Origin: Myxococcota bacterium
Lineage (GTDB): Bacteria > Myxococcota_C > UBA6777
Length of the DNA: 47,173 nucleotides
NCBI GenBank assembly: GCA_023150835.1
Contig: JAKLKB010000038.1
Coordinates: 1-47,173, forward strand
Direction of reading: 5' to 3'
Shown: piece after piece, positions 8,393 through 35,874 of the stretch
How the letters are laid out: each line of letters opens with the position of its first letter
How positions within the stretch are numbered: the first letter of the stretch is position 1
Position numbers and translations under genes: made by a program
The notes under the pieces: model-generated
What the model was told of the DNA's origin: nothing
Seen by the model: the letters and a program-made list of their open reading frames with translations, nothing else
Databases searched by the model: none

Positions 8393-11359
8393 CTAAAGGA
8401 TTTCCTGCATCGGCGTCACCAAAGCCCCATTGACGAGGCGGCCACTTTCGAGACGAAGGATCTGCCAAGTCGCAGGAGTCACACCCAGTAGGTGCGAAAA
8501 AACTTCGGAAGGACGGGGGCTTTTGCCTTGCGTATCTTGGAAGGTGATCACCAAACCATCGCCCAACCACGGTCCCCACGAGGTCGGAATGCGTGTTCCC
8601 CCGACCACGATCTCCCACGAAGGGACAACCGTTTGCAGATCAGCCGTGTAGGTTTGTTCCTTGCGAACAAAAGAACAAGGCTGAGATATCCGCTGCGAGA
8701 TGATCTCTTGCCACGCTTCGGGGCGTTGCGTCGTGGGCAACAAGCAAAAGTATTGCCAAGCAGAGATCACTTTGCTGATGCCCAAAAGACGCGCATGAAG
8801 CGGCACCACCGAAAGAAACGACAACCCCTCGATCGCGTGCTCTTGTAGGCGTGCAAGCATCGTATCCAGCGCAGGCATCGTATAAAACGACAGATCGACG
8901 TACTCCGCCAACGAAGAGGCCCCCAACGGTAAGTCATGGGCAAAGCGCACCGTCACCGTGTCGCCCGTCTCGCGCAAAAAGGGAAGCCCGCTGCGTCGAA
9001 ACGTCGCGTGCAACATCGGGAGAAAGTCTTTTTGCGTCATCAACGTGGCGTAGCCTGTACGCGCATAACGCAAACGGCAGCGATATTGATTCGGATTGTT
9101 GGGGATGATCACCGCTGGGGCCTCACGTTTGGCCCGCTCTTGCGGCACAAGGATCCGATCGGCGTGTTCGCGCAACACAAGCAAAAGACCGCGCATCTCT
9201 TCGTGCGAAGTGCCACAAGCCAAACAATGCGCTCCTAGAAATTCCGATGATCGCGATAGCTCCGATGATCGTGATAGCTCCGATGATCGTGATGGCTCCG
9301 ATGGTTTCGACGGCTCCAACGATCGCGATGATTCCGGCTGTTTCAATGGTTCCGACCGTTCCGAATCTTTCGATCGTGCCGGCGGCCTCGGTAGTTGTAA
9401 TGGATTCGTATCTTTCGAGATATCCCGATCGACCGAGGGGATATCTGCCCTCCACGCTTGCAAGCATATTTGCCAGATGGACTCCGCCTTTGTGTCGTCC
9501 TCTTGAAGATCGATCGCAGCACGAGACAACCTCTCGGCCAACAAAGCACAGCCCGCAACATCGGTCAAAACCATCGCCGCAAACGTCCGCCGCCACGCAG
9601 CAGGTGCTTTGATCCGAAAGTCCCACGCCTCGGCCAATTGTTCGAGAGCCGCAAGCCTCTCCTTCCATTCGTCATGCGAAAGCAGCGGATATTGCGTCGT
9701 CTCTGAAATATTACGCGGCAGCCAAGGATGCACAAACAGCCGCACTCTCCCGTTGCGCTGGTAAAGTTTGCTGATCTGTGTCGCTTTTCTACCGATCCGC
9801 GCCCATGCCAGCGCCTCTTGTGGACCTCTGCTCGGAACACCCAACAACAGATCCAACGGAACTCGCGTGTGACGCTGCGCCATCCGCTCTCGCCACATAC
9901 ACGGCCAAAAAGCGATGGTGGAGTCGTACCAGACCTCTTCTTCTTGCTCTTGTGAACCCTCTAAGCCCGATGGATAGGCATCCCACGCCATACACAATGC
10001 CCATTCATCCTGCCGATACATCATCCGATCCAGCCAACCATCCAGCCCCAACGCACTCAAGGCCTCCTTCCATCGTTGCTTTTCAAATGATCTCGCCGTG
10101 ATATCTTTTGTATCAGAAAAACTGGCCTCGCTCCCCTCCGCTTGTACCGCAGAAGCGGCCTCGCTTCCCTCTGCTTGTACCGCAGAAGCGGCCTCGCTTC
10201 CCTCTGCTTGTATCGCAGAATAGGCCTGTATCGCAGAAGCGGTTTCGATTTCCGCAACCTGTATCGCAGGGACGGTTTTTTTAGGCCGCACAAGCGTCGG
10301 GCGATGGATGGCCCCAAAAGACCGAGACATCGCGTCACGATGGTCTTGTTGAGCCTGTGCAAGCCAAAGCTCCCAACGTTCCCAAGCAGGTGTCTGTGGC
10401 CCGGGTTGGAGCAGATCGAGAAAACATTGCAACAAGCGAGACAGCGTTGTATCGGCTGTTTCACGCAACAACGCATCTCGGCAAAAAGCACAGCCTTGAA
10501 GATGCCATTGGCCCAACGTCCACAAAAGCGCACGTTCCGGATCAGACAGCGCATCCATCGCAGGGATCGCAAGCTGCTTCGGCCAGACCGATGCGGTCCG
10601 GATCGCATCGGTGGGTAGCTCGTACGCGAGCTTGGCTTGCTTTTGCGCTTGCCAACGCGGCGCATACATCAACAACAACGTCAGCGGATCGCCGATCAAA
10701 AACGCATCCAACCACCCCCACAAAACAGATGGCGATGAAACCTCCAAACCATCCGTATGTTCCGTATGTTCCGTATGTTCCGTATGTTCCGTATGTTCCG
10801 TATGTTCCGTATGTTCCGTATGTTCCGCATCATGCACATATTCCGTATCACACGCATGATCCGTATGCTCCGTATCATGCGTATGTTCCGTAGGTTCCAT
10901 ACGGCGTCCCAAACGGCCCACGCCATACAACAACGGCTTTTTCTTGCGATGTTCGGCCATCACAGGGATCTTTGCTTGCTCCAAGATACGCAACAGACGC
11001 AAGATATCTTCAGGTTGATCAAGGATCGCAAGCAAGATATCAAAGTCCTCTAACGGAGAGGCACTTTCCATGCTGCGTAAGACTTCTCCTTGTTCAAACA
11101 AATCGGCAGATTCTTCGGGCGAGATCGCAACAACACGCTCGACTTGGATCGAAGGGAGCGTATTGAGCAAACGGTACATCCAAAGGTGTTGTAGCTCGCG
11201 GTGGGAAGTATCTTCGCGCACAGGTAGCAGCAACGCGAGACGCAGCGATTGGGCGTCGGGCGTGATCGTCAAAGCTTCGTGCTCACCTGCAACACAGCGA
11301 TAAGCCTGATACCAGCGAAAAAGTGCGTCGCGGTAGGGATGCGAATACAGATCAAACAT
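8393..11359 (-). CDS. degenerate radical-SAM-type protein with C-terminal DUF2344 domain
   Basis: 988 residues. The N-terminal 30-230 region follows the TIGR03960-type pattern of fused radical-SAM proteins (LLNTLPSIQVERV, LRSMESASPLEDFDILL, AKIPVMAEHR, WLDAFLIGDPL). Residues of about 790-940 match the radical-SAM-linked DUF2344 domain (YRCRLRYARTGYATLMTQKD, HATFRRSGLPF, SLAEYVDLSF). The middle, where the [4Fe-4S]-binding CX3CX2C should be, has only an isolated CAFC, so the iron-sulphur site appears lost. A second Cys pair (CLACGTSH) precedes DUF2344. Linkers contain three in-frame minisatellites (EHT, EAASAVQAEGS, SRSSEL). It starts 15 bp after arsS and is probably co-transcribed with it. Likely a cytosolic, catalytically changed paralogue; role unknown. 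Confidence 0.7.
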   Translation of the reverse strand: MFDLYSHPYRDALFRWYQAYRCVAGEHEALTITPDAQSLRLALLLPVREDTSHRELQHLWMYRLLNTLPSIQVERVVAISPEESADLFEQGEVLRSMESASPLEDFDILLAILDQPEDILRLLRILEQAKIPVMAEHRKKKPLLYGVGRLGRRMEPTEHTHDTEHTDHACDTEYVHDAEHTEHTEHTEHTEHTEHTEHTEHTDGLEVSSPSVLWGWLDAFLIGDPLTLLLMYAPRWQAQKQAKLAYELPTDAIRTASVWPKQLAIPAMDALSDPERALLWTLGQWHLQGCAFCRDALLRETADTTLSRLLQCFLDLLQPGPQTPAWERWELWLAQAQQDHRDAMSRSFGAIHRPTLVRPKKTVPAIQVAEIETASAIQAYSAIQAEGSEAASAVQAEGSEAASAVQAEGSEASFSDTKDITARSFEKQRWKEALSALGLDGWLDRMMYRQDEWALCMAWDAYPSGLEGSQEQEEEVWYDSTIAFWPCMWRERMAQRHTRVPLDLLLGVPSRGPQEALAWARIGRKATQISKLYQRNGRVRLFVHPWLPRNISETTQYPLLSHDEWKERLAALEQLAEAWDFRIKAPAAWRRTFAAMVLTDVAGCALLAERLSRAAIDLQEDDTKAESIWQICLQAWRADIPSVDRDISKDTNPLQLPRPPARSKDSERSEPLKQPESSRSLEPSKPSEPSRSSELSRSSELSRSSEFLGAHCLACGTSHEEMRGLLLVLREHADRILVPQERAKREAPAVIIPNNPNQYRCRLRYARTGYATLMTQKDFLPMLHATFRRSGLPFLRETGDTVTVRFAHDLPLGASSLAEYVDLSFYTMPALDTMLARLQEHAIEGLSFLSVVPLHARLLGISKVISAWQYFCLLPTTQRPEAWQEIISQRISQPCSFVRKEQTYTADLQTVVPSWEIVVGGTRIPTSWGPWLGDGLVITFQDTQGKSPRPSEVFSHLLGVTPATWQILRLESGRLVNGALVTPMQEIL
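9240..9385 (-). repeat. 18-bp in-frame minisatellite (Ser/Arg/Glu) in the DUF2344 gene
   Basis: The 18-bp unit GATGATCGTGATAGCTCC and variants recur about six times with increasing divergence. On the minus strand they encode SELSRS repeats just upstream of CLACGTSH. Confidence 0.85.
10126..10240 (-). repeat. 33-bp in-frame minisatellite in the DUF2344 gene
   Basis: Three nearly exact 33-bp units plus a partial unit encode EAASAVQAEGS on the minus strand, in the middle of the protein. Confidence 0.9.
10752..10830 (-). repeat. 9-bp in-frame microsatellite (His/Thr/Glu) in the DUF2344 gene
   Basis: About eight tandem copies of the 9-bp unit TATGTTCCG (plus strand), encoding a run of EHT on the minus strand. 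Diverged copies continue to about 10900. It falls in the loop before the N-terminal domain's final WLDAFLIGD segment. Confidence 0.95.
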
Positions 11360-32835: not shown

Positions 32836-33906
32836 ATGGTCGCTCTTTATAGAGAACCAACTCTTGAAAATGTGGTGTTATCCACCCTCCCATACCAAGT
32901 GGAAAGAAGCCGCCTCCCGAGCAAAGCACAAGACCATCGCGCTCTCTTTTCGTCGAAAAGCCCACATATACGCGAGGGAGAGTCGTATCCAAAACAACCC
33001 TTGAGCAGTCAAGAGCTTTTGTTGCAAAAAACCTACGCAGCTCTCGATCTGGAGATCGAAAAAATCGTCTCCAGCAAGTCCGTAAGCGAATTGCACTCCA
33101 GCATGACGCAGGGACTCTCTGCATCGTTTGAGTATTCGGTGGCCTATGCAAAGTTTCTGTTATCCATCGACGAAGAGAGTGTCGTTGCTTTTCTAACCCC
33201 ACCGCCGTCGCTGGTAGAAGAAAAAGATTTCGCAGAACATCGAATGCCAGAGCGGTTTCGCCGCAGTGTTCTACAGACTTTCAAAAAAATGTTGGACAAC
33301 GCGAGTCTACAAATTCTCTACTTACAAAAAGTAGCCCAAGATCCGATCTCACCAAAGACAGCAAACCAACCCCAAGGCCACTTTTTGCGCTCTTTTATTG
33401 GGTACTCTTTGCGATCAGAGGAAGATTGGCGACGAGAGGTTCTTTCGTGGTCTCAGGGCGAAGTCCCAACACATCACCTCATGGCAAGTTCTCTTTCCTA
33501 CCAAATGGCTGTGTTGTCTTTTTTTAAGACGGATCGCTCTAATCTGGAGTATCCGCTTGCGGTAGTCGAAGAGATACACGCGCAAGCCGTCCGCCAAAGC
33601 CACACGAACACAAAAACGTTGGATTTCTTTTACAGACAAGTTTTTGCTGAACTTTTCATTCAAAAAGTTTCGGAGATTCCGTGCGTTCTTGGTGTTCTCA
33701 AAAATACCAAACACATCCAAACCGATTCGTTTTATGTCCGAGTAAAGCACGCTGCAACAGATGAAGAAATCGATCCGATCTATGATGCTGAAGCTGAGTA
33801 TCTGTTGCCGTTGAGGAATCCTCCAAAGATGGAGATCACTTTTTCTTCCGCAGACAAGTTTTCCCACTACTCGCCCGTATGGCAGCGCGAAGAGATTTCT
33901 TTATGA
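32836..33906 (+). CDS. hypothetical protein
   Basis: 356 residues. AGGAG at 32820-32824 selects ATG 32836 (MVALYREP); earlier in-frame starts lie in or beside the minisatellite. The protein has no signal peptide and looks soluble and helical. Recognisable stretches are few: LLQKTYAALDLEIEKIVSSK, EYSVAYAKFLLSIDEESVVAFL, and a Phe/Tyr-rich C-terminal third. No family recognised. Codon use is more A/T-rich than in the flanking core genes, which suggests an accessory gene. The IscB omega-RNA begins about 55-75 bp after its stop codon. Confidence 0.6.
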   Translation: MVALYREPTLENVVLSTLPYQVERSRLPSKAQDHRALFSSKSPHIREGESYPKQPLSSQELLLQKTYAALDLEIEKIVSSKSVSELHSSMTQGLSASFEYSVAYAKFLLSIDEESVVAFLTPPPSLVEEKDFAEHRMPERFRRSVLQTFKKMLDNASLQILYLQKVAQDPISPKTANQPQGHFLRSFIGYSLRSEEDWRREVLSWSQGEVPTHHLMASSLSYQMAVLSFFKTDRSNLEYPLAVVEEIHAQAVRQSHTNTKTLDFFYRQVFAELFIQKVSEIPCVLGVLKNTKHIQTDSFYVRVKHAATDEEIDPIYDAEAEYLLPLRNPPKMEITFSSADKFSHYSPVWQREEISL

Positions 33907-33980
33907 TCGCGGAAAAATACAGAGAAATCGCCCTTTGCAATGAACGCCTATTTGAAAGCCTTCACTCCCAAGCAACCTGC

Positions 33981-34203
33981 GGTCAACGACCCACCCCTAA
34001 AGGGGCGGGCTTGTGAAAGCAAGCCCAGTTGACCAGACGACAACAGAGGAAGTGGCGCAAGCCAAGTTGTTGTGAACGATAGAGAGCATGTAGAGACCCT
34101 CGGATGCCGCCTCAGTTCGGGGCCCTCTCGTGGCACTGTAAACATCTGCTTGGGTGAGCGGAAGTCAACCACAATGCGAAGGCTCTTCTATCCCGTCGAG
34201 AGG
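33981..34203 (+). ncRNA. omega-RNA scaffold of IscB
   Basis: Non-coding, structured sequence immediately upstream of iscB, where IscB omega-RNAs lie. By eye: outer stem GGTCAAC (33981-33987) with GTTGACC (34028-34034). Inside it are CCCC-TAAA-GGGG and GGGCTTG-TGAAAG-CAAGCCC hairpins. GGC-GCAA-GCC lies within ACAAC/GTTGT. A terminal stem CCTCTCG (34124-34130) pairs with CGAGAGG (34197-34203) and ends exactly at the iscB ATG. In known systems the guide is the roughly 15-20 nt directly 5' of the scaffold, here about 33960-33980; that boundary is not proven. The RNA would direct the nuclease to matching DNA. Confidence 0.8.
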
Positions 34204-35502
34204 ATGTCGGATTCTGTGCTTGCCTCAAAAAGCACAGATACGCACGACCTGAAAAGGAAAAACGTCTTGTTCGTTTTTATTCAAAACCAACACGGAACTC
34301 CCTTGATGCCTTGTTCTCCGGCCAAGGCTCGCCGTCTGCTCAACGATGGCAAAGCCAAGGTACTGCGAAAAACCCCCTTTACGCTCAAGCTGTTGTATGG
34401 CAGTTCGGGATACAAACAGCCTGTAGTCGCGGGCATGGATGCGGGAACGCACACCCTTGGATGCGCGGCGGTCACGAACGGCCAAGTCGTGTATCAGTCG
34501 GAGGTCAAGCTCCGAACCGATGTCTCCAAAAAGATGCAGCAAAGGGCGGTGTATCGGCGGAATCGGCGAGGACGCAAAACCCGCTATCGCAAAGCTCGCT
34601 GGCGCAATCGTGCGAGTCTGCGCAAAAAAGGTCGGATTGCGCCGTCGGTGCGCTCGAAGATCGAGAGCCACTTGCGTGAGAAAAAGCAGGTGGAGTCCAT
34701 ACTTCCCGTGACGAGATGGAAAGTCGAGACCGCGAGTTTCGATATACACAAGCTCACGAACCCCGAAGTGTCGTCTTTGGGCTATCAGGAAGGCGCTCAA
34801 AAGGGATACTACAACGTGAAAGCGTACGTACTGGAGCGAGATGGGTATCGCTGCCAATCGGGGCGAAAAGCGGAACACGACAAGGTATTACAAGTGCATC
34901 ACAAGGTGTATCGCTGTCAGGGCGGGACAGATACGCCCGACAATCTCGTCACGTTGTGTCGAAGGTGTCACGAGGACTTGCACGCTGGGATGTTTGAACT
35001 CAAGGCAAAAAAAAGCAAAACCAAACACGCGACAGAGATGGGGATCGTGAAAGCGCAGTTGAAAAAACGTTGGAGGTTTGAAGAGACGTATGGCTACGAG
35101 ACGAAGTACAAGCGAGAACAGTGTTTGGGCTTGTCGAAGAGCCATGCCAACGATGCGGTGGCGATCTGCTGCGAAGAAGGAGAGACGGTGAAGTTGGACG
35201 AAGTGTTGTACTTGAAGCGGCATGTTTCGGCAGGGGATTACCAACAAACGATGGGCAGACATTCACAAACACGTATCCCCACAGGAAAACTGTTTGGGCT
35301 ACGCAAACACGACTTGGTCAGGACAGAAAAAGGCACAGGATGGGTCAAAGGCAAGCGCAGTACGGGCTTTTTCGTACTCGAAACCATCGACGGCCAAACC
35401 CTCACCACTTCCGTCAATGTCAAGAAGGCCACCACTCGGCTGGCCGCACGAACCACCACCCTCACAACACAAAGAAAGAGCGGCGCTTCCTCCCCCCTCT
35501 AA
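34204..35502 (+). CDS. iscB: IscB RNA-guided nuclease (RuvC + HNH), IS200/IS605-associated
   Basis: 432 residues from ATG 34204; earlier in-frame ATGs fall in the omega-RNA. Domains in order: PLMP domain with GTPLMPCSPAKARRLL (residues 31-46); RuvC-I with GMDAG (Asp79); Arg-rich bridge helix (about 114-138); RuvC-II with KVETASFD (Glu175); HNH with VHHKV (His232/233), Asn247 and CRRCHEDLH (252-260); RuvC-III with SHANDAVAI (His314, Asp317); C-terminal TAM-interacting-like region with TGKLFGLRKHDLV. All nuclease residues seem present. One oddity: the first zinc pair usually seen as CxxC reads CQSGRK, so one Cys is missing. IscB is the transposon-encoded ancestor of Cas9. No Y1 transposase TnpA is nearby. 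Confidence 0.93.
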   Translation: MSDSVLASKSTDTHDLKRKNVLFVFIQNQHGTPLMPCSPAKARRLLNDGKAKVLRKTPFTLKLLYGSSGYKQPVVAGMDAGTHTLGCAAVTNGQVVYQSEVKLRTDVSKKMQQRAVYRRNRRGRKTRYRKARWRNRASLRKKGRIAPSVRSKIESHLREKKQVESILPVTRWKVETASFDIHKLTNPEVSSLGYQEGAQKGYYNVKAYVLERDGYRCQSGRKAEHDKVLQVHHKVYRCQGGTDTPDNLVTLCRRCHEDLHAGMFELKAKKSKTKHATEMGIVKAQLKKRWRFEETYGYETKYKREQCLGLSKSHANDAVAICCEEGETVKLDEVLYLKRHVSAGDYQQTMGRHSQTRIPTGKLFGLRKHDLVRTEKGTGWVKGKRSTGFFVLETIDGQTLTTSVNVKKATTRLAARTTTLTTQRKSGASSPL

Positions 35503-35547
35503 AGAAGGGGGTCTCCGCGCCTTAAAAACGATGAAGATCGGCGGTGG

Positions 35548-35874
35548 GTGATTACGATCATGTTTTATGCCGCGCTTCACTGGGTGAATACTGTGATGGC
35601 AGTTTGCGGGATAGAAACCGACGAAGAAGGCAGCCATGCGCTGCGTTCTCGTTTTTTAAACGATCGAAACTTTGAGCTTATAGGGATCGCGAAAGCCTAC
35701 AGAAATCTGCTTTCCGCAAGCAAAGACGCAAGATACCGAGGCGAGACATTCACCGCGCAAGATGTGCAGTCAAGACGTTCATCTTACGACAAGATCAAAA
35801 GCACTTGCATTCAATGGACTCAGGATCACCCCCACCCCACAGATGCGCAGAAATTAGCAGCCCAAGCACTCTAG
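35548..35874 (+). CDS. HEPN-like small protein, apparently 5'-truncated at the IscB element
   Basis: The frame is open from just after the iscB stop (35503) and continues in the same frame. The first start codon is GTG 35548, giving 108 residues, with no good ribosome-binding site. The sequence WVITIMFYAALHWVNTVMAVCGI, then SHALRSRFL and YRNLLSASKDARYRGETF matches a HEPN-like family, which normally has about 20 more residues before the FYAALH helix. Those residues (DEDRRW just upstream) are partly present, but no start codon precedes them. HEPN proteins are often RNases or toxin components; the RX4-6H motif is not clear here. I infer that the IscB element landed at this gene's 5' end. Confidence 0.6.
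   Translation: MITIMFYAALHWVNTVMAVCGIETDEEGSHALRSRFLNDRNFELIGIAKAYRNLLSASKDARYRGETFTAQDVQSRRSSYDKIKSTCIQWTQDHPHPTDAQKLAAQAL

What the first reader, a model, noticed from the sequence alone, without database searches (positions are those of the whole stretch)
33960..35502. Intact IscB nuclease with a complete, foldable omega-RNA
The window carries a solo IscB with all RuvC and HNH catalytic residues. Directly upstream is a structured non-coding region whose last stem (CCTCTCG/CGAGAGG) closes exactly at the start codon. IscB is the RNA-guided ancestor of Cas9, so each intact natural example with a readable guide is of interest. Here the first zinc pair of HNH is altered (CQSG instead of CxxC) and no TnpA is adjacent. 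The guide should be the bases immediately 5' of 33981.
Basis: partly seen in the sequence, partly recalled or inferred. Interest (0 to 1): 0.88.

Follow-up and report, generated by a model that had tools for sequence, protein, structure and literature searches.

The report
IscB mobile element docking at start codons
This is a genuine, intact copy of a known kind of RNA-guided mobile element (IscB, an ancestor-type relative of Cas9); many sister copies in the same and a related bacterium show that it inserts in front of the motif ATGA, very often exactly between a gene's ribosome-binding site and its start codon, so the RNA guide then matches that gene's own translation-start region.

Summary
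A full-length HEARO (IscB omega-RNA) hit at 33982-34208 (91 bits, cut-off 83) precedes an IscB well above NCBIfam's cut-off, with all RuvC/HNH catalytic positions. It is a new member of a known kind, not a new system. Corrections: iscB probably starts at TTG 34267, not ATG 34204. CCTCTCG/CGAGAGG is complementary but not paired in the Rfam or MFE structure; at most a pseudoknot. "CQSG" is not decay: a 65%-identical IscB in another phylum shares it.

Beyond the claim: the element (33982-35530) is multicopy. A same-genus genome gives three reciprocal empty sites. They define the ends, show no target duplication, place the guide in the left host flank and the target motif (ATGA, rarely GTGA/ACGA) on the right. 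In most copies that ATGA is the start codon of the next gene (metK, actD, transaldolase, ACP), and left flanks often end in a Shine-Dalgarno motif. This exceeds chance even counting only non-coding sites, and recurs in plasmid IscBs from several phyla. The window's own copy instead interrupts a small ORF. Neither genome shows an intact IS605-type TnpA. I could not check whether start-codon docking is already published; the ATGA/GTGA target I recall as known.

The parts
33962..33981 (+). Predicted guide: last 20 nt of host left flank, TCACTCCCAAGCAACCTGCG, directly 5' of the omega-RNA scaffold
   Evidence: HEARO hit begins at 33982; same sequence without the element in sister genome G001
33982..34208 (+). 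omega-RNA (HEARO) scaffold; its first base is also the left end of the mobile element
   Evidence: Rfam RF02033, 91 bits; compensatory outer-stem changes
34204..35502 (+). iscB ORF; most likely true start TTG 34267 (411 aa); ATG 34204 would give 432 aa
   Evidence: NF040563 326 bits vs 175; relatives L052/L053 start at the aligned residue; SD AAAAGGAA at 34252-34259
35460..35530 (+). Right end of the element, including the GC-rich hairpin CCTCCCCCCTCTAAAGAAGGGGG and terminal CG
   Evidence: Conserved in 31 listed right-end sites from own and sister genome
35531..35534 (+). Target-adjacent motif / insertion target ATGA, belongs to the host flank
   Evidence: Present at the right ends listed (GTGA in one); ACGA in the G001 empty allele
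33903..33981 (+). 5' part of the interrupted host ORF (MIAEKYREIALCNERLFESLHSQATC...)
   Evidence: Frame continues across the empty site of G001
35531..35874 (+). 3' part of the interrupted host ORF (...DEDRRWVITIMFYAALHWV...)
   Evidence: 98% identical protein in G001 L067

Best explanation
A 1549-bp solo IscB element of the IS200/IS605-like (ISC/HEARO) kind. The omega-RNA is transcribed through the left end, taking the adjoining host bases as its guide; IscB plus this RNA recognises the empty site (guide match followed by ATGA) and cuts it, so a site that has lost the element is recopied from an occupied one (homing or retention). A transposase supplied in trans moves the element to a position directly 5' of ATGA without target duplication. 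Because ATGA is often a start codon followed by A, copies settle between the Shine-Dalgarno and the start codon, leaving the coding sequence intact; the iscB stop lies about 28 nt before the new start, so the downstream gene is probably translated from the element's leader or by coupling to iscB. Shown: ends, target motif, guide origin, copy number, empty sites, start-codon excess. Inferred from the family: RNA expression, cutting, homing, transposase in trans, translational coupling.
For: HEARO and IscB models. Multicopy: left ends on contigs C52, C218, C166, C106, C145, C220 (91-93% identical) and right ends on C238, C212, C198, C100, C171, C87 (95-99%), mostly where the assembly broke. Empty sites: window site vs G001, actD (G000 occupied, G001 empty), transaldolase (G001 occupied, G000 empty). 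ATGA at the right end in 30 of 31 listed sites, GTGA in the other (that search pattern required NTG[AG], but the unconstrained list shows the same). metK found once in G000, with orthologues in G002-G004 starting at or next to the same Met. Pfam domains near the N-terminus begin at residues 3-14 for MetK, TAL, ActD, HPF, BMC and ACP. SD motif in 18/40 left flanks vs 10.7% of background ATGA (p 3e-8), shifted controls 2, 1, 5. At least 14 of 27 non-intragenic sites at starts vs 12.6% of non-coding RTGA sites, p 1e-6. Plasmid IscBs: 10 of 19 distinct sites have the annotated next CDS starting ATGA at the right end. Published TAM of the related IsrB: NTGA, cutting shown with ATGA (PMC9581776).
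Against: No RNA or cleavage data. The G001 empty allele at the window site has ACGA, not ATGA, so that allele may not be cut. No intact IS605-type TnpA found in either same-genus genome, although the assemblies are 93% and 86% complete. The window's own copy is intragenic, not at a start codon. The AlphaFold model was too poor to use (mean pLDDT 39.5).
Confidence: 0.93

Rival explanations
1. The start-codon excess is only survivorship: insertion is random at ATGA, and copies inside genes were purged, leaving start-codon sites because they keep the coding sequence intact. (This is a rival to the docking part only, not to IscB identity.)
For: ATGA is the only motif seen at the junction; intragenic copies do occur (the window, C87, G001 C326), so insertion is not restricted to starts.
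Against: Even among non-coding RTGA sites only 12.6% are starts, versus at least 14 of 27 non-intragenic insertions; but selection may also act on promoter and terminator disruption, so survivorship beyond simple purging cannot be excluded.
Confidence: 0.5
2. The locus is a decaying or catalytically altered relic: loss of the second zinc cysteine (CQSG) and an intragenic position mean it no longer works.
For: First zinc pair lacks its second Cys.
Against: The same CQSG occurs in a 65%-identical Methylococcaceae IscB and in the C87 copy; reading frame, all catalytic residues and the omega-RNA are intact; near-identical copies sit at many sites.
Confidence: 0.06
3. A domesticated regulator: nuclease-guide complexes bound at former 5' untranslated regions repress or regulate genes, similar in outcome to TnpB-derived repressors.
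For: Guides of many copies cover the Shine-Dalgarno region and the target motif is the start codon.
Against: In an occupied site the target is split by the element itself, so a single-copy gene offers no intact target; catalytic residues are intact; copy number and polymorphic sites fit a mobile element.
Confidence: 0.05

Closest known systems
IscB / OMEGA system of IS200/IS605-superfamily (ISC) transposons, e.g. OgeuIscB (PDB 7XHT, 7UTN)
   Same: Domain order, catalytic residues, upstream omega-RNA with guide at its 5' end, solo occurrence without TnpA
   Different: 411-432 aa versus about 496; first zinc pair CQSG; multicopy in one host genome with resolved empty sites
HEARO RNA (Rfam RF02033)
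   Same: Full-length match with conserved outer stem and adjacent HNH-protein ORF; from memory, HEARO elements were described as sitting next to ATGA/GTGA
   Different: Diverged from the model consensus (91 bits, 8 above cut-off)
IsrB (DtIsrB)
   Same: Published TAM NTGA, ATGA accepted (PMC9581776), like the ATGA found here
   Different: IsrB lacks the HNH domain, present here

Membership tests
IscB | IscB-specific protein model above curated cut-off | tested here: met
   NF040563 326.1 bits vs 175
IscB | Split RuvC plus HNH with all catalytic residues, and an arginine-rich bridge region | tested here: met
   D79, E175, H232/H233, H314, D317 invariant in alignment; RRXRR region
IscB | HNH fold confirmed by structure | tested here: inconclusive
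   AlphaFold mean pLDDT 39.5 with a three-sequence alignment
HEARO omega-RNA | Covariance model match above gathering score directly 5' of iscB | tested here: met
   91 vs 83 bits
HEARO omega-RNA | Compensatory base changes | tested here: met
   Four fully paired variants of the outer stem
OMEGA / ISC element | Guide derives from host DNA flanking the left end | tested here: met
   Three reciprocal empty sites
OMEGA / ISC element | Target-adjacent motif 3' of the target in the empty site | tested here: met
   ATGA in actD and transaldolase empty sites; ACGA at the window site
IS200/IS605 superfamily | No target duplication, terminal hairpins | tested here: met
   Empty sites and conserved end hairpins
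IS200/IS605 superfamily | Moved by a Y1 TnpA | tested here: inconclusive
   None intact found in G000/G001, only a fragment and single-copy REP-type relatives
IscB | RNA-guided DNA cleavage | not testable with these tools
   Needs biochemistry

The most novel reading that the evidence does not exclude
IscB elements dock preferentially at start codons: target motif and start codon coincide, the element separates Shine-Dalgarno from AUG and supplies its own translation leader (perhaps coupled to iscB) for genes as basic as metK, so losing the element is costly and the guides form a record of host translation-start sites.
Probability: 0.4. Interest if true: 0.65.

Novelty: new member of a known kind. 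Interest (0 to 1): 0.42.

Why it matters
Natural IscBs with known ends, copies, guides, target motif and empty sites in two close genomes are a ready-made system for testing homing by a Cas9 ancestor. The start-codon position gives a simple testable idea for how such elements survive in genomes: they land where coding sequence is not damaged and may become part of a needed gene's expression. How solo IscBs move without a nearby TnpA remains open and is directly testable here.

Tried and rejected
Decay through CQSG: rejected, shared by a relative. The CCTCTCG/CGAGAGG pairing as closing stem: absent from MFE and Rfam structures; the complementarity is kept in lineage copies, so a pseudoknot remains possible. 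An autonomous sister element with TnpA and the same ends: no matching ends found near the Y1 genes examined in G000-G004 loci. AlphaFold model too weak for a fold search. MAFFT alignment of distant omega-RNAs misplaced the second hairpin, so stems were compared directly. The original IscB/ISC papers (PMC8929163, PMC4810608) and PMC4140389 (a guess at the HEARO paper) are not held; no held paper found on start-codon docking.

Full report
Check of the claim. The window contains one Rfam match, HEARO RF02033, at 33982-34208 on the + strand, covering the whole model at 91 bits against a gathering score of 83. The ORF behind it scores 326 bits against NCBI's IscB model (cut-off 175) and 201 bits against the Pfam RRXRR family, plus an HNH match. 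All catalytic positions are present and invariant against IscBs of a Methylococcaceae and an Elusimicrobia genome that are 63-65% identical, and the protein aligns to solved IscBs. The folding energy of the scaffold is only modestly unusual (z -2.1); the case for the RNA rests on the covariance match and on compensatory changes in the outer stem (four fully paired variants).

Corrections. The ATG at 34204 is probably not the start of IscB: relatives start at the residue aligned with position 22, and the window has a TTG at 34267 preceded by AAAAGGAA at 34252-34259. The CCTCTCG/CGAGAGG complementarity is real, but the two segments are not paired with each other in the Rfam alignment or the minimum-energy fold; if the pairing forms, it is a pseudoknot. 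CQSG instead of CxxC is shared with the 65%-identical Methylococcaceae protein, while the Elusimicrobia protein has CxxC; the second pair C252/C255 is kept.

The element. In the window's own genome (7.56 Mb, 239 contigs) closely similar left ends lie at the ends of six other contigs, and right ends on six more, five of them at contig ends; the assembly evidently broke inside the repeat. A same-genus genome (G001, the Myxococcota MAG KLAP109 judging from shared contig sequences) has even more. Aligned ends give the left terminus GTCAAYGACC and the right terminus ...CG, followed by ATGA (GTGA once), with no conserved base to the left.

Empty sites. The interrupted ORF of the window is present in G001 without this copy: CCTGCG directly followed by ACGAAGATCGG, where the window has CCTGCG, element, ATGAAGATCGG. 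G001 carries its own copy of the element 42 bp upstream, at an ATGA that is unoccupied in the window. Two more reciprocal pairs follow: actD (empty in G001: AAAAAGGATACGTTG then ATGAAGTGG; occupied in the window genome after AAAAAGGATCTACGGTCA) and transaldolase (empty in the window genome: AAGGAGATTCCG then ATGAGC; occupied in G001 after AAGGAGATCCA). A few bases next to the junction differ between the two genomes. There is no target duplication. The element is therefore 33982-35530, the guide is the left host flank, and ATGA belongs to the host on the right.

Start codons. In most copies that ATGA opens the next gene: MetK (found once in this genome; orthologues in three same-family genomes start at or next to the same Met), ActD, ribosome hibernation factor, a microcompartment protein, transaldolase, acyl carrier protein, and several proteins beginning with signal or lipoprotein peptides. 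I count 14 sites as confident starts from N-terminal domain positions and signal peptides; the signal peptides are my own reading. Eighteen of 40 left flanks end with a Shine-Dalgarno motif against 10.7% of background ATGA sites (p 3e-8; shifted controls 2, 1 and 5). Against non-coding RTGA sites of the window, of which 12.6% are predicted starts, at least 14 of 27 gives p 1e-6; this null comes from a simple ORF-based gene set of one 47-kb window. Independent annotation: in plasmid IscBs from Pseudomonadota, Bacillota, Fusobacteriota and Deinococcota, the next annotated CDS begins with ATGA at the right end in 10 of 19 distinct sites, and the Methylococcaceae and Elusimicrobia relatives do the same. 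HEARO hits were found in all twelve plasmid loci tested.

Interpretation. Known biology of this superfamily (recording of the insertion site in the guide, and cutting of the empty site after transposition, described for TnpB in PMC11870625) fits the features seen; IsrB, a close relative, has a published NTGA TAM and cuts ATGA targets (PMC9581776). The point worth following is where the copies sit: the guide is often the Shine-Dalgarno region and the target motif the start codon. Whether this is preference of the transposase or selection is not settled. The iscB stop lies about 28 nt before the downstream start in this lineage and overlaps it in some others, which makes translational coupling plausible but unproven.

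Transposase. No TnpA is adjacent. Genome-wide, the window's genome shows only a 28-residue Y1 remnant beside a tnpB-like ORF and a single REP-type Y1 protein; G001 shows only the latter type. Two IscB lineages about 32% identical (the window's and C172/C226) share similar ends: C172 has a right end 93% identical to the window's over 68 bases and both share the first 53 bases of the left end at 83-85%, suggesting one machinery acts on both.

Verdict. The finding is right in substance and is a new member of a known kind. Start-codon docking is the part worth following; I could not establish whether it has been described, because the original HEARO and IscB papers are not in the library. From memory, ATGA/GTGA adjacency of HEARO elements is known.

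Noticed in passing
L005/L025 (G000 C37:582), L115 (G001 C253), L027 (G000 C169): Short left-end-only remnants of about 65-82 bp that end directly at ATGA, in two cases apparently the start codon of a gene: possible non-autonomous or aberrantly ended elements.
   Followed up: partly
L144 (G000 C225), about positions 1967-2056: Two right ends in tandem about 90 bp apart in front of the ribosome hibernation factor gene, the second directly at its start codon.
   Followed up: no
L003 (G000 C172), L122 (G001 C211), L140 (G001 C14): Same right flank (MSISLEQPTWL gene) in both genomes but different left flanks on C172 and C14, while the C172 left flank recurs on G001 C211: copies seem to have recombined or nested, which would swap guides.
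   Followed up: partly
L033 (G000 C129) and L108 (G001 C67): The 16-nt guide of the C129 copy matches a site in G001 directly followed by GTGACGAA: a likely fourth empty site with a GTGA motif.
   Followed up: no
L051 (G000 C113), minus strand: REP-type Y1 transposase relative whose frame contains a long tract of repeated QIGQA units.
   Followed up: no
window 10757-11053: Tandem repeat region translating as repeated HTEHTEH / MFRMFR units.
   Followed up: no
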